Source of the DNA: Streptomyces sp. WMMC940
GTDB lineage: Bacteria > Actinomycetota > Actinomycetes > Streptomycetales > Streptomycetaceae
Assembly (NCBI RefSeq): GCF_027460265.1
Contig: NZ_JAPZBC010000001.1
Span: forward strand, 434,001-498,000
Direction: 5' to 3'
DNA length: 64,000 nt
Shown: positions 40,837 to 44,803 of the stretch, one piece after another
Layout: every line of letters starts with the position of its first letter
Position numbering within the stretch: the first letter of the stretch is position 1
The notes under the pieces: model-generated
Database searches by the model: none
What the model saw: the letters and a program-made list of their open reading frames with translations, nothing else
Told to the model about the DNA's origin: nothing
Translations under genes and position numbers: made by a program

Positions 40837-41264
40837 CGCCCGTGCCGTCCGCGACCACCCGCGGGTGACGGCGCCCGGGCGGCCGGCCCGCTGAGATCCC
40901 GCACGGGCGTCCGAGCGGACGGCCGCTCCCATCCGGCGCGGGCGTCCCGCCCGACCCGTCCCCACCGGGGACGCCCGACCCGGGCATTGGCCCATCGGAC
41001 GTCTTTCGTACGGCCGAACGGCGGGCAGGCCGCCCACCCCTGTGGCGACAGGTCGTCAAAGGGGGAACAGAACCCGGTTCACAGGGTTCCGGAGCACCCT
41101 CGAACCCCACGTCCGGGGCCCTTTGGTCACTCACCCGCATGGACTAATCACGGAGCGAGAACCCCTGCGGCCATTGGGGTGTCCGCCATTCGGAGTTGCA
41201 GCCCCCCACGGGCCATGAGTCCTTGGAAAGCGTGTCCCGCCGGTTCTCACCATCAGGAGGAGAC
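40837..41264. other. Regulatory region upstream of the four-gene P450 operon, 428 bp
   Basis: No gene is supported. It contains a GTCCCC-ACC-GGGGAC hairpin near 40958 that may end transcription of the FUSC-like gene, and a nest of inverted repeats at 41064-41090. From 41110 the sequence is less GC-rich than its surroundings, as expected of a promoter region. Confidence 0.45.
41064..41090 (+). promoter_or_regulatory. Nested palindromes with ECF-like promoter spacing
   Basis: An 11-bp palindrome GAACC-C-GGTTC (41070-41080) is followed by a third half-site GGGTTC (41084-41089). Flanking GGAAC (41064-41068) and GTT (41086-41088) are 17 bases apart, resembling the GGAA(C/T)-N16-18-GTT layout of extracytoplasmic-function sigma promoters. 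It lies 175 bp before the operon start. Repressor site and promoter cannot be told apart here. Confidence 0.4.
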
Positions 41265-41603
41265 ATGGGCACTGTGCAGAACAGCCGACAGAACGACAGG
41301 CTGTCCGTGGTTTTCGCGGTCCGGGTCATCGAGGGCGGCGAAGAGGGATTCCTGGAGATGTACGACAAGCTCCGGAAGTCCGTCGCCGGTACTCCCGGCC
41401 ACATCGTCGAGCGGCTCGGTGAGCCCGTCGACGACTCCCGCCAGTGGGTGATCACCAGCGAGTGGGAGACTCCCGAACACTTCTTCGCCTGGCAGCAGAG
41501 CGAGGACCACCGTGCGCTGGTGGCCCCGCTCCGCGAATGGGTCGACTCGACGCAGTCCCTGAGGTTCCGGGTCGTCAAGGAGACCGTGAAGGAGACGTCA
41601 TGA
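41265..41603 (+). CDS. Antibiotic biosynthesis monooxygenase (ABM) domain protein
   Basis: 112 residues from ATG 41265 with AGGAGG 6 bases upstream; an upstream GTG/ATG frame extension has no support. The dimeric alpha-beta ABM fold is suggested by LSVVFAVRVIEGGEEGFLEMYDKLRKSVAGTPGHIVERLGEP and EWETPEHFFAWQQSEDH. ABM proteins include cofactor-free quinone-forming monooxygenases and haem-degrading or structural relatives, so the reaction is not fixed. First gene of a four-gene operon; the stop overlaps the next ATG (ATGA). Confidence 0.85.
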   Translation: MGTVQNSRQNDRLSVVFAVRVIEGGEEGFLEMYDKLRKSVAGTPGHIVERLGEPVDDSRQWVITSEWETPEHFFAWQQSEDHRALVAPLREWVDSTQSLRFRVVKETVKETS

Positions 41604-42487
41604 CATACGCCACGAACGGCCCCGTCGCCGTCCTCGGTCTCGGCACCATGGGCAGCGGCCTGGCCTCGCGCCTCCTCGATCAAGGCATACAGGTGCGGGT
41701 GTGGAACCGCACCCCGGAGCGTGCCGAGTCCCTCGCCAGAGCGGGCGCCTTCGCCGCGTCCCGCCCGAGCGAGGCTGTCGAGGGCACGAGTGCCGCCATC
41801 TGCACCGTCGCCGACGGCGACGCCCTGCGGACCGTACTGCGCGGTCCGGACGGGATCCTGGCACGGGACGGCTATCCCGGAGCCCTGATCTGCGCCAGCA
41901 CCGTCGCTCCCGAGGAGGTCGTCCGGCTCGCCGGTGACGCACCCTCCGTCCTGGACGTCGGCATGCTCGGCAACCGCGACCACGCCCGCGACGGCGAGCT
42001 GCGCCTGTTCGTCGGCGGCGAGGAGCGGGTCTTCACCGCCGGCCGTCCGCTGCTGGAGATGCTGGCCAAGGAGGTCGTCCATCTGGGCGCACTCGGTTCC
42101 GGCATGCGGATGAAGCTGCTCCTCAACCTGCTGATGGGCATAGAGGTGCAGGCGATGGCCGAGGCCGCCGAGCTGGCGGCCGCCTCCGGACTCGACCGGA
42201 AGCAGGTCCTGCGCACGATTGCGGGCAGCGGCTTCGCGTCGCCGGTCATGTCGTTCAAGTCCCGGCGCCTTGCCTCGGGCCGCTTCGAGGAGCCGGACTT
42301 CCGGCTGCGGCTGATGGCCAAGGACCTCATGCTCGCAACGGAGCAGGCCGCAGCTTCCGGCCTGAGCCTGCCGCTCACCGCGGCGGCCGCGGAGACCCAT
42401 GTCCGCGCCATCGAGCAGGGGTTCGGTGACGAGGACTGCGCCGCGGTCACCCGCGCCCTCACACGGAAACCGGGAACCGACAAATGA
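41600..42487 (+). CDS. NADP-dependent beta-hydroxyacid dehydrogenase-like oxidoreductase
   Basis: 295 residues. The Rossmann motif GLGTMGSG (13-20) is followed by VWNRTP (35-39), whose Arg favours NADPH. The catalytic Lys172 and Asn176 of the family are kept in GSGMRMKLLLN. The usual substrate loop DAPVSGG is replaced by LDVGMLGNRD (118-127), so the substrate is not 3-hydroxyisobutyrate or a simple relative. Imine reductases share this fold. It is coupled on both sides by ATGA overlaps. Confidence 0.88.
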   Translation: MTYATNGPVAVLGLGTMGSGLASRLLDQGIQVRVWNRTPERAESLARAGAFAASRPSEAVEGTSAAICTVADGDALRTVLRGPDGILARDGYPGALICASTVAPEEVVRLAGDAPSVLDVGMLGNRDHARDGELRLFVGGEERVFTAGRPLLEMLAKEVVHLGALGSGMRMKLLLNLLMGIEVQAMAEAAELAAASGLDRKQVLRTIAGSGFASPVMSFKSRRLASGRFEEPDFRLRLMAKDLMLATEQAAASGLSLPLTAAAAETHVRAIEQGFGDEDCAAVTRALTRKPGTDK

Positions 42488-43506
42488 TCATCGACATCCA
42501 CGGACACCTGTCCCCGCCGGAGGCGGCCGAACGCTTCCCCATGCCCCCCAGCCTGACCGACGTGGACGGAATGCTCGCCGCCCGGGCCCAGGCCGGAATC
42601 GACCTCACCATCATCGGCAGCCCCGTCGGCGCCGGGGCGATGGCACGGGTCCCGGGCGTGGACAACTACAAGCAACCGCGCGACCGGCTGCGTGGCTTCC
42701 ACGCGTGGATGTCGGGCCTGATCACCACGTTCCCGGACCAGTTGCGCGGGTACGTCTACGCGAACCCGTTCGGGGACGACGACCATCTGGAAGGGGTGCG
42801 GGAGACGCTGGCGGACCCCGCCTTCGTCGGTCTGATCACCACTTCCAGCGTGCACGGCGAGCTGCTCTGCTCGCCGCGGGCGGACTCCTTCTTCGCGCTG
42901 GCCGCCGAGGCAGGAGTGCCCGTCATGGTGCACGCACCGGCGGAACCGGTCGGCACGGAGCGGGTGGAGAACATCGCCTTCGTCGAGCAGATCGGCCGTT
43001 TCGGCGACGTCACCATGGGCATGGCCATGATCGCTTTCGCGGGGTGGCTGGACAAGTACCCCGGTCTGCGACTGATCGGCGCGACCGGCGGCGGTGCCAT
43101 GGCACTGCTGCCCGAGCGCCTCCAGATGGCGGCGCGCCCCCGGCACTGGGGCGGGGGCGCGCCGCCCTCCGCCCCGCCGGAGGCCGGCCGGAAGGGGGCC
43201 GGAAGGCCCTCGGCCGGCCGGCCGGCGGGGGGCCCCGGGCCGACCGTCCCGGCGTCGCCCGACCCGGGTGCCGCGCTGCAGCGCATGTACGTCGACACCA
43301 GCCCGTTCAGCCCGGCGCACCTGAACCTCAACGCGGAGGTCCTGGGGCCCGAGCGGATGCTTTTCGGCACCGACTCGCCGCCGCTGTCCGTGCCGCTCGA
43401 GGACCTCGTCCGCATGATCGAGAAGCTGCCCGTCCAAAAGGCGGACCAGCAGCGCATCCTCGGCGGCAACGCCGAGGCCCTCTTCGACCTCAGGAGCCGT
43501 CCGTGA
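42484..43506 (+). CDS. ACMSD-like amidohydrolase with a replaced active-site histidine
   Basis: 340 residues, TIM-barrel amidohydrolase of the aminocarboxymuconate-semialdehyde decarboxylase type. Metal ligands H6, H8 (IHGH), H150 (VMVHAP) and D297 (GTDSPP) are present. The family motif with the catalytic His before GGG (HGGG in ACMSD) reads ATGGG here, with Thr201 in place of His. Residues about 219-262 are an inserted Gly/Pro/Arg/Ala-rich low-complexity loop before the barrel continues with MYVDTSPF. Relatives decarboxylate aromatic or alpha-amino-muconate acids. Loss of His may alter the reaction or abolish it. Coupled to both neighbours. Confidence 0.82.
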   Translation: MIIDIHGHLSPPEAAERFPMPPSLTDVDGMLAARAQAGIDLTIIGSPVGAGAMARVPGVDNYKQPRDRLRGFHAWMSGLITTFPDQLRGYVYANPFGDDDHLEGVRETLADPAFVGLITTSSVHGELLCSPRADSFFALAAEAGVPVMVHAPAEPVGTERVENIAFVEQIGRFGDVTMGMAMIAFAGWLDKYPGLRLIGATGGGAMALLPERLQMAARPRHWGGGAPPSAPPEAGRKGAGRPSAGRPAGGPGPTVPASPDPGAALQRMYVDTSPFSPAHLNLNAEVLGPERMLFGTDSPPLSVPLEDLVRMIEKLPVQKADQQRILGGNAEALFDLRSRP

Positions 43507-44741
43507 CCACGACGCACGACCCCGTCGCCGCAGCCGAGCGGTGCACCGCGGAGTTCCGGCGGAACCCGCACCCGGTGTACGCGCACCTCCGGGACACCAC
43601 TCCCGTCTGCCCGATGACGCCGCCGCACGGCATCGAGACGTACCTGATCACCCGGTACGAGGACGCGCGCGCGGCACTGTCGGACCCCCGGCTGAGCAAG
43701 GACATGTACGGGGCCATGGACGCGTACCGGAGGATCTTCGGCGACTCGTCGGTGGCACTGGACGACAACATGCTCAACTCCGACGCGCCCAAGCACACCC
43801 GGCTGCGCAAACTCGTCAACTCCGAGTTCACCCCGCGCCGGGTCGAGGCCCTGCGGCCGAAGATCCAGGAGATCGTGGACCGGCTGCTCGACGCATGCCC
43901 GACCGGGGAGCCGTTCGACCTGCTTCCGGCGTTCGCCTTCCCGGTGCCGATCACGGTGATCTGCGAGCTGCTCGGCGTACCGCCGGAGGAGCGGTCGCTG
44001 ATGCAGGAGCTGTCGACGACGGTGGCCCAGACGGGCTTCGGCGAGGAGTTCAAGCGGGCCCAGCAGCAGGCGGAGGAGAACCTCCACGCCTACTTCACCG
44101 AGCTCATCGCGCGCAAGCGCGACCGGCCGGGTGACGACCTGCTCAGCGCGCTCGCCGCGACCCAGGACCAGGAGGGCGGGCTGACCGGCAACGAACTGGT
44201 CTCCACGGCCTTCCTGCTGATGTTCGCGGGCCACAAGACGACCGCGTACCTCATCGGCAACGCCGTGTACCACTTCCTCGCCAACCCGGCACAGCTCCGC
44301 GCCGTGCAGGCGGACCCGCAGCTGACGGGCCCGGCGGTGGAGGAACTGGTCCGCTTCGACGGCTCGGTCGAAAGCGCGACGTTCCGGTACGCGACCGAGG
44401 ACATGGAGATCGGCGGCACCCGGATCCCCAAGGGCGCCCTGGTGCAGATCTCGCTGCTCTCGGCCAACCGCGACCCGCTGAAGTTCGAGAACCCGGACGA
44501 GTTCGACGTGCACCGCCAGGGCACCGCCGCGCATATCGGCTTCGGGCACGGCGGCCACTACTGCCTGGGAGCGCCGCTGGCACGGCTGGAGACGCAGTTG
44601 GCGCTGAACGGCCTGTTCGGCCGGTTCCCGAGGATCGCACTGGCCGATCCGCAGACCGGGCCGGCGTGGATGGAGGTGCCGTTCCCGGCCTTCCGCGGCC
44701 TCACGGAACTGCCGGTCGTGCTCGAACCCGCCGCCTCCTGA
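43503..44741 (+). CDS. Cytochrome P450 with AGHKTT I helix
   Basis: 412 residues from GTG 43503, overlapping the previous stop (GTGA). Haem motif FGHGGHYCLGAPLARLE (Cys354), ExxR as E281-LV-R284. The I helix is FAGHKTT (241-247): Lys245 replaces the acidic residue of the usual AG-x-E/D-T proton-delivery pair, while the Thr is kept. This would change oxygen activation or indicate an unusual reaction. It looks like a class I bacterial P450 (CYP105/107-like by eye), and no ferredoxin lies beside it. Last gene of the four-gene operon. Confidence 0.9.
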   Translation: MTTTHDPVAAAERCTAEFRRNPHPVYAHLRDTTPVCPMTPPHGIETYLITRYEDARAALSDPRLSKDMYGAMDAYRRIFGDSSVALDDNMLNSDAPKHTRLRKLVNSEFTPRRVEALRPKIQEIVDRLLDACPTGEPFDLLPAFAFPVPITVICELLGVPPEERSLMQELSTTVAQTGFGEEFKRAQQQAEENLHAYFTELIARKRDRPGDDLLSALAATQDQEGGLTGNELVSTAFLLMFAGHKTTAYLIGNAVYHFLANPAQLRAVQADPQLTGPAVEELVRFDGSVESATFRYATEDMEIGGTRIPKGALVQISLLSANRDPLKFENPDEFDVHRQGTAAHIGFGHGGHYCLGAPLARLETQLALNGLFGRFPRIALADPQTGPAWMEVPFPAFRGLTELPVVLEPAAS

Positions 44742-44758: not shown

Positions 44759-44803
44759 GCCGCGGTGCGAGCCCGTACCCCCGAGCCGGACTCGCACCGC
44801 GGC
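44759..44803 (+). terminator. Terminator of the four-gene P450 operon
   Basis: Perfect 13-bp inverted repeat (44759-44771 with 44791-44803) around a 19-base loop, 18 bases beyond the P450 stop. Confidence 0.7.

What the first reader, a model, noticed from the sequence alone, without database searches (positions are those of the whole stretch)
41265..44741. Four-gene coupled operon: ABM monooxygenase, NADP dehydrogenase, ACMSD-like amidohydrolase and P450
All four genes overlap by 4 bases at each junction, are preceded by palindromes and a possible ECF promoter and end at a strong hairpin, so they form one unit. The set (quinone-type monooxygenase, dehydrogenase with a novel substrate loop, decarboxylase-type barrel, P450) looks like a compact pathway that remodels a small, probably aromatic molecule. 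I know no described pathway with exactly this set; that statement is from memory only.
Basis: partly seen in the sequence, partly recalled or inferred. Interest (0 to 1): 0.75.

Follow-up and report, generated by a model that had tools for sequence, protein, structure and literature searches.

The report
Travelling four-gene spore-pigment finishing cassette
Four tightly joined Streptomyces genes travel together as a unit and most likely finish the colour compound of the spores, whose core is made by genes elsewhere on the chromosome; if so, they give a handle on a pigment whose last steps are not understood.

Summary
In detail: ABM (41265-41603), dehydrogenase (41600-42487), amidohydrolase (42484-43506) and P450 (43503-44741) overlap by 4 bp at each junction. 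The same order is kept in 32 complete relatives; the next most common neighbour family is in 9 of 41 loci. Best reading: not a pathway of its own but a stand-alone tailoring cassette for the whiE spore-pigment polyketide, acting in trans. (1) The ABM matches the N-terminal ABM domain of WhiE ORF I. (2) A whiE-type ketosynthase is in 32 of 33 cassette genomes but 17 of 32 same-genus genomes without it (p=3e-5); other type II ketosynthases 21/33 vs 21/32. The link survives an rpoB-tree test. (3) In 4 of 17 cassette-free whiE loci, whiE itself carries a 64%-identical P450, an ABM and an amidohydrolase; in 0 of 36 loci of the cassette group. (4) Distant dehydrogenase-amidohydrolase pairs sit inside whiE-like type II PKS clusters. 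The amidohydrolase keeps the metal ligands of the ACMSD fold but has Thr at the catalytic His position (120 of 120 listed). The chemistry is inferred. One cassette genome (G081) has no type II ketosynthase at the cut-off.

The parts
41191..41221 (+). Conserved promoter-like box CGGAGTTGC-N14-CATGAGTC upstream of the operon
   Evidence: footprint; core exact in 26 of 33 aligned upstream regions; only exact match in the own genome
41231..41237 (+). Conserved CGTGTCC (GGACACG on the other strand); role unknown
   Evidence: footprint; exact in 26 of 33 upstream regions
41255..41262 (+). Ribosome-binding site AGGAGGAG
   Evidence: sequence, conserved
41265..41603 (+). ABM, 112 aa, homologous to the N-terminal ABM domain of WhiE ORF I
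   Evidence: PF03992; 42% to own WhiE-I residues 10-114; PDB 9lmm and 9lmn
41600..42487 (+). Beta-hydroxyacid-dehydrogenase-family NAD(P) enzyme, catalytic Lys172/Asn176 kept, loop DVGMLGN instead of VSG(S/T)
42484..43506 (+). ACMSD-fold amidohydrolase: metal ligands H6, H8, H150, D297; Thr201 at the catalytic His position
   Evidence: AF2 model pLDDT 91.6, Foldseek to ACMSD
43144..43263 (+). Pro/Gly/Ala-rich insert of the amidohydrolase (residues 221-260), low model confidence
   Evidence: block means of pLDDT 57-73; protein length varies among relatives
43503..44741 (+). Cytochrome P450 (PikC-like by best solved relatives), heme Cys354, ExxR (E281, R284) kept, Lys245 at the I-helix acid position
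44759..44803 (+). Inverted repeat after the operon, possible terminator without a T-tract

Best explanation
The four genes are one transcription unit that works as an accessory tailoring cassette for the whiE spore-pigment polyketide, whose PKS lies elsewhere (in this genome at G000:C1 about 6.90 Mb, against 0.476 Mb for the cassette). Shown: gene overlap and order, conservation, families, active-site residues, co-occurrence with whiE, and a version with a related P450, an ABM and an amidohydrolase inside whiE in other species. Inferred: co-transcription; the WhiE polyketide (or a close relative) as the substrate; the ABM helping to oxidise or fold the aromatic rings; the P450 oxidising the product, perhaps coupling phenolic rings; the dehydrogenase doing an NAD(P)H-linked redox step on an oxygenated side chain or ring; the metal-binding amidohydrolase removing or rearranging a carboxyl-bearing group without the usual catalytic histidine. 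The result would be a changed spore colour or a cross-linked pigment.
For: ABM 41-51% identical to WhiE-I N-terminus, 42% for the window's own. WhiE-type KS in 32/33 cassette genomes vs 17/32 without, p=3e-5; other type II KS 21/33 vs 21/32, p=1. Tree-based dependence test, 65 tips: LR 13.7 and 17.4, p=0.001 and 0.0002. P450 63.6-64.8% identical within the whiE locus of 4/17 cassette-free genomes, next to an ABM (34-37% to WhiE-I in 3 checked) and with an Amidohydro_2 protein (2 checked by Pfam) in the same locus, vs 0/36 in the cassette group, p=0.008. Lys at the I-helix acid position in 36/36 cassette P450s and 3/3 whiE-embedded ones checked. DH-AH pairs inside type II PKS clusters in S. coacervatus, Amycolatopsis anabasis and G037. 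Distances of cassette proteins follow those of WhiE proteins beyond rpoB: 15 of 16 pairs p<0.05.
Against: G081 (L021) has the cassette but no type II KS at the cut-off. The cassette's box is not found in the own whiE stretch. In the whiE-embedded version no DH was found in the stretches read, and its amidohydrolase is only 22-27% identical and keeps the His. Six P450s at 73-75%, of unseen surroundings, are closer to the whiE-embedded P450 than the cassette P450s are. Two of the three PKS-embedded DH-AH pairs are in clusters with pentangular features, not spore-pigment clusters. ABM vs WhiE-I in the distance test is p=0.079. No expression or chemical data. Cassette genomes and comparison genomes came from different samples, and the former were chosen by their cassette. 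Seven of 36 and 3 of 17 whiE loci were read at less than full width.
Confidence: 0.7

Rival explanations
1. A self-contained small pathway: the four enzymes modify a primary or imported aromatic molecule and have nothing to do with whiE.
For: Stand-alone location: a search with WhiE proteins found no ketosynthase in loci L001-L034, up to 10 kb either side; G081 has the cassette without a type II KS at the cut-off; the promoter box is not shared with whiE.
Against: Specific co-occurrence with whiE-type KS, also on the rpoB tree; WhiE-type ABM; a related P450, an ABM and an amidohydrolase inside whiE in four other genomes.
Confidence: 0.15
2. The cassette tailors another type II polyketide (pentangular-like), and the link with whiE is indirect, by shared lineage or shared chemistry.
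For: DH-AH pairs are embedded in pentangular-like clusters (L037, L075) and in a second type II cluster of S. coacervatus (L035).
Against: Other type II KS are equally common with and without the cassette (21/33 vs 21/32); in 11 of the 33 cassette genomes the whiE-type KS is the only type II KS at the cut-off, and one (G081) has none.
Confidence: 0.12
3. A catabolic or detoxifying operon of the ACMSD / hydroxyacid dehydrogenase type.
For: Some source names (aminocarboxymuconate-semialdehyde decarboxylase) and the enzyme classes.
Against: No other gene family is conserved beside it in more than 9 of 41 loci; the amidohydrolase lacks the ACMSD catalytic His and the dehydrogenase lacks the Ser of the usual substrate loop.
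Confidence: 0.03

Closest known systems
whiE spore-pigment cluster (ORFs I-VIII) of Streptomyces
   Same: The cassette ABM is homologous to the WhiE ORF I N-terminus; the cassette co-occurs with whiE; four of 17 cassette-free genomes read carry a related P450, an ABM and an amidohydrolase inside whiE
   Different: The cassette lies elsewhere, has no PKS gene, and adds DH and an unusual amidohydrolase
Pentangular clusters (pradimicin, benastatin, formicamycin, frankiamicin): ABM proteins PdmH/PdmI, ForS, BenH
   Same: ABM proteins act as oxygenases or as fidelity/cyclisation helpers (PMC6689052, PMC4383371; passages read); DH-AH pairs occur in clusters with pentangular features (L037, L075)
   Different: 'Amidohydrolase' does not occur in the main text of PMC4383371; the cassette is outside any PKS cluster
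ACMSD and related metal-dependent decarboxylases (PF04909)
   Same: Fold and metal ligands
   Different: Catalytic His replaced by Thr in the cassette type and never His in the PKS-like group; 13-19% identity in the 50 best structural alignments listed
Beta-hydroxyacid dehydrogenases (3pef, 3pdu)
   Same: Rossmann motif, Lys and Asn of the active site
   Different: Loop GMLGN instead of VSG(S/T)
RslH amidohydrolase of the rishirilide cluster
   Same: An amidohydrolase gene beside a type II PKS cluster that also has an ABM gene (PMC7221717, passages read)
   Different: Reported as not essential for rishirilide; its sequence was not compared here

Membership tests
ABM superfamily (PF03992) | Pfam match above the gathering score | tested here: met
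   53.6 bits vs 23.1
WhiE ORF I | N-terminal ABM plus following SchA/CurD-like domains | tested here: not met
   112 aa; only the N-terminal domain matches
ACMSD (decarboxylase) | metal ligands HxH, His, Asp | tested here: met
   H6, H8, H150, D297 in 120/120 of the best-listed homologues, of 502 found
ACMSD (decarboxylase) | catalytic His of the HGGG motif (His228; number and role recalled) | tested here: not met
   Thr in 120/120; His in 0 of 73 with a residue there (1 gap) in P0121-P0194; His in 31/33 far relatives; alignment to ACMSD
Beta-hydroxyacid dehydrogenase | GxGxxG, catalytic Lys and Asn | tested here: met
   36/36 for the glycines, K172 and N176
Beta-hydroxyacid dehydrogenase | substrate loop with Ser (VSG) | tested here: not met
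   GMLGN in 36/36; VSGS/VSGT in 3pef/3pdu
Cytochrome P450 | heme Cys motif and ExxR | tested here: met
   Cys354, Glu281 and Arg284 each 36/36
Cytochrome P450 | acid-alcohol pair in the I helix (recalled) | tested here: not met
   Lys245 in place of the acid 36/36; Thr246 35/36, Ser in one
whiE spore-pigment cluster | physical linkage to the whiE PKS genes | tested here: not met
   cassette at 476 kb, whiE at 6.90 Mb
whiE spore-pigment pathway | genetic requirement for spore pigment | not testable with these tools
   needs a mutant
Already characterised cluster | match in MIBiG | not testable with these tools
   no MIBiG search on hand; paper searches only

The most novel reading that the evidence does not exclude
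Spore colour in Streptomyces is set by exchangeable tailoring modules: one stand-alone cassette (this one) and one whiE-embedded version, found in species that include S. coeruleorubidus and S. djakartensis (the first, and several species whose P450 is close to it, are blue-spored by my recall only). The cassette's amidohydrolase founds a subfamily that uses the ACMSD fold for a reaction without the general acid/base histidine.
Probability: 0.35. Interest if true: 0.8.

Novelty: new variant of a known kind. Interest (0 to 1): 0.62.

Why it matters
To my recollection the finished structure of the Streptomyces spore pigment is still not known, because it is hard to extract, and work has centred on the whiE genes. 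A conserved trans-acting cassette would supply missing late steps, would suggest why whiE alone may not give the native pigment in some species, and would show that tailoring genes can lie far from their PKS, where cluster-finding programs would not join them. It also offers an ACMSD-fold enzyme subfamily with an altered active site for study.

Tried and rejected
Looked for a larger conserved cluster around the cassette: none; the next most common neighbour family is in 9 of 41 loci, several of them short contig ends. Looked for the promoter box at whiE: 0 hits with up to 3 mismatches. A genome scan gave one exact hit among 21 places with up to 3 mismatches, against 28 for the reversed control pattern, so no wider regulon is indicated. 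A first pattern with the wrong spacing (N15) gave 21 places, all with 2-3 mismatches, and no exact match in 87 loci.

Looked for published descriptions; nothing with this gene set among the listings and passages seen (one search held 64 papers, of which 25 were listed). Passages were read in seven papers (two in the first pair, four in the second, PMC12664062 and PMC7296137 adding nothing on this set). Searched for blue-spore statements on the named species: the phrase occurs in none of the 15 papers listed of 17, so that point rests on recall.

A first rpoB tree was wrong because some sequences were read in the wrong frame; it was discarded and redone. The first distance-correlation run gave no correlation for the three CLF pairs because of a wrong CLF match in G078; it was rerun without G078. 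My first crude gene caller failed in the cassette region; a codon-usage caller replaced it. The catabolic-operon idea was rejected for lack of conserved neighbours and for the altered active sites.

Three counts rest on labels of mine. 'whiE-type KS' means >=75% identity to the own-genome whiE KS; the next group is <=69%. 'PKS-like group' means P0121-P0194; I saw the gene surroundings only of L037 and L075, which stand for the query and one or two of them. 'Cassette group' of 36 whiE loci means 32 cassette genomes, three genomes with cassette fragments (L036, L038, L039) and S. coacervatus (L035).
Full report
WHAT IS THERE. Four plus-strand genes, ABM 41265-41603, DH 41600-42487, AH 42484-43506 and P450 43503-44741, overlap by 4 bp at each junction. 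Pfam: ABM; NAD_binding_2 + NAD_binding_11; Amidohydro_2; p450. NCBIfam gives no match above its curated cut-offs for the four. None has a TTA codon. Neighbours are a FUSC-type membrane protein and a HAD-IIA hydrolase.

IT IS A CONSERVED CASSETTE. A scan of genome contigs with AH returned 58 loci, of which L001-L041 are the closer relatives. Of these 41, 32 hold all four genes complete at >=60% identity in the same order; seven are contig fragments (L032, L033, L036, L038-L041), and two are the divergent S. coacervatus L035 and Amycolatopsis anabasis L037. The 4-bp overlap is kept in 31, 30 and 32 of 32 at the three junctions. Outside the four genes no gene family is shared by more than 9 of the 41 loci; the FUSC neighbour is matched only in L001 and the HAD neighbour in L001 and L002. 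In a sample of 61 relatives, AH is found in 6: 5 of 37 in the genus (own genome included) and G037 in another family of the order. Upstream, a box GGAGTTGC-N14-CATGAGTC and a CGTGTCC are each exact in 26 of 33 aligned regions; the box is unique as an exact match in the own genome and absent from the own whiE stretch.

LINK TO whiE, 1: THE ABM. The cassette ABM's best solved relatives are 9lmm and 9lmn, the latter the 42.8-kDa whiE-locus protein. It is 42% identical to residues 10-114 of WhiE ORF I of the own genome (cassette ABMs of other loci 41-51%). The own whiE cluster has ORFs I-VIII at G000:C1 about 6.90 Mb (L069).

LINK TO whiE, 2: CO-OCCURRENCE. With the own whiE KS as query, identities fall in two groups, >=75% and <=69%; one further match (G078) is 81% over 314 residues only and is counted as whiE-type. 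WhiE-type KS: 32 of 33 cassette genomes (L001-L034 without L028, which is not held) against 17 of 32 same-genus genomes without the cassette; Fisher p=3e-5. Other type II KS: 21/33 vs 21/32, p=1. The exception is G081 (L021), with none at the cut-off. The three genomes with cassette fragments only (L036, L038, L039) have it too, 3 of 3. On an rpoB tree (65 tips after removing 3 outgroups, 34 with cassette or fragment, 49 with whiE) the cassette changes state at least 15 times (300 shuffles: mean 22, lowest 17), and models in which the two traits depend on each other fit better: LR 13.7 (p=0.001) and 17.4 (p=0.0002). Four genomes are missing from the tree because rpoB was not found at the cut-off: G001 and G062, G071 and G085 of the cassette set. 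G016, G030 and G034 were not fetched and G020 was removed, because they have the same places as G070, G064, G061 and G076. Bias: cassette genomes were chosen for having it, and their completeness is not told.

LINK TO whiE, 3: A VERSION INSIDE whiE. I read 53 whiE loci: 36 of the cassette group and 17 cassette-free. In 4 of the 17 (G001, G007, G009, G026) the whiE locus contains a P450 63.6-64.8% identical to the cassette P450, an ABM directly downstream of it (PF03992 in the one scanned; 34-37% identical to WhiE-I in three compared), and an Amidohydro_2 protein (two scanned). In the 36 there is no P450 hit (p=0.008). Seven of the 36 and three of the 17 loci were shorter than the rest; WhiE-VIII, beyond which the P450 lies, is present in 35 of 36 and 15 of 17. 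Three of three of these P450s checked share Lys at the I-helix acid position with 36 of 36 cassette P450s. In the protein database the listed relatives of the whiE-embedded P450 fall into a group at 80-94%, six proteins at 73-75% of unseen surroundings, and a group at 61-68% in which several are cassette P450s by shared contig length with AH hits (for example S. formicae and strain A3M-1-3). No DH was found in those stretches, and the amidohydrolase there is 22-27% identical to AH and keeps the HGGG motif in 3 of 3 printed: the same fold, not the same enzyme.

LINK TO whiE, 4: PKS-EMBEDDED RELATIVES. S. coacervatus L035 has DH (50%), AH (61-63%) and ABM (45%) in one run inside a type II PKS cluster with KS, CLF, ACP, aromatase, cupin, WhiE-VII and separate proteins matching the later part of WhiE-I; that genome also has a whiE-type KS elsewhere. 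Distances among cassette proteins track those among whiE proteins beyond rpoB in 25 genomes: 15 of 16 pairs at p<0.05, P450 vs WhiE-I partial r 0.64; ABM vs WhiE-I p=0.079. rpoB is a slow marker, so this is supporting evidence only.

ACTIVE SITES. AH: a profile of 40 sequences aligns with ACMSD; the AF2 model (pLDDT 91.6) best matches ACMSD and related decarboxylases, TM about 0.74. Metal ligands H6, H8, H150 and D297 are in 120 of 120 best-listed proteins. The position of the catalytic His in the HGGG motif is Thr201: Thr in 120/120; no His in the 73 of P0121-P0194 with a residue there; His in 31/33 far relatives. DH: catalytic Lys172 and Asn176 36/36, loop GMLGN 36/36, where 3pef and 3pdu have VSGS and VSGT. 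The PKS-embedded DHs have MLGN (L035), VLGN (L075) and LIGN (L037) there. P450: heme Cys and ExxR 36/36, but Lys at the acid position 36/36.

MECHANISM. Most likely the cassette acts in trans on the WhiE polyketide. From the passages read, ABM proteins of aromatic polyketide pathways oxygenate rings or keep the pathway on course (PMC6689052; PMC4383371). The P450, lacking the usual acid, may hydroxylate or couple rings. DH would perform an NAD(P)H-linked redox step. AH would act on a carboxyl-bearing or hydrated intermediate with its metal site but a different proton donor. These assignments are inference. WhiE ORF VIII transcription depends on sigF in S. coelicolor (PMC4282423, passages read); whether the cassette follows is unknown.

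AGAINST. G081; no shared promoter box; the non-orthologous amidohydrolase and missing DH in whiE-embedded loci; closer P450s of unseen context; pentangular-like rather than spore-pigment context of two distant relatives; no functional data.

NOVELTY. No paper with this gene set was seen in the listings; the library holds only open-licence papers, and MIBiG was not searchable. RslH, an amidohydrolase by the rishirilide cluster, was reported dispensable (PMC7221717, passages read). I rate this a new variant of a known kind: polyketide tailoring, but unlinked, conserved, and with an altered amidohydrolase.

Noticed in passing
L068 (G000:C1:1662001-1682000): A second type II PKS cluster in the own genome with genes that look like glycosyltransferases, an ABM-like protein, a P450 and an ABC transporter; product not identified.
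   Followed up: no
L035:3811-12669: S. coacervatus type II PKS cluster in which WhiE-I seems split into separate proteins and DH-AH-ABM are built in.
   Followed up: partly
L205, L208, L212, L217: whiE loci with an added P450, ABM and a His-containing amidohydrolase, in genomes that include S. coeruleorubidus and S. djakartensis.
   Followed up: partly
window 41231-41237: CGTGTCC conserved upstream of 26 of 33 cassettes; contains GACAC on the other strand, recalled as the core of WhiA sites.
   Followed up: no
L037:2-9356: The A. anabasis stretch also has an acyl-CoA-ligase-like enzyme and an NRPS-like adenylation protein next to P450 and SDR genes, by eye from the sequences.
   Followed up: no
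L200 (G078): The whiE KS of S. capoamus is matched only over residues 1-314; possibly broken or masked.
   Followed up: no
P0163, P0186: AH-like proteins in Gemmataceae and Solirubrobacteraceae records, far from Streptomyces; surroundings unseen.
   Followed up: no
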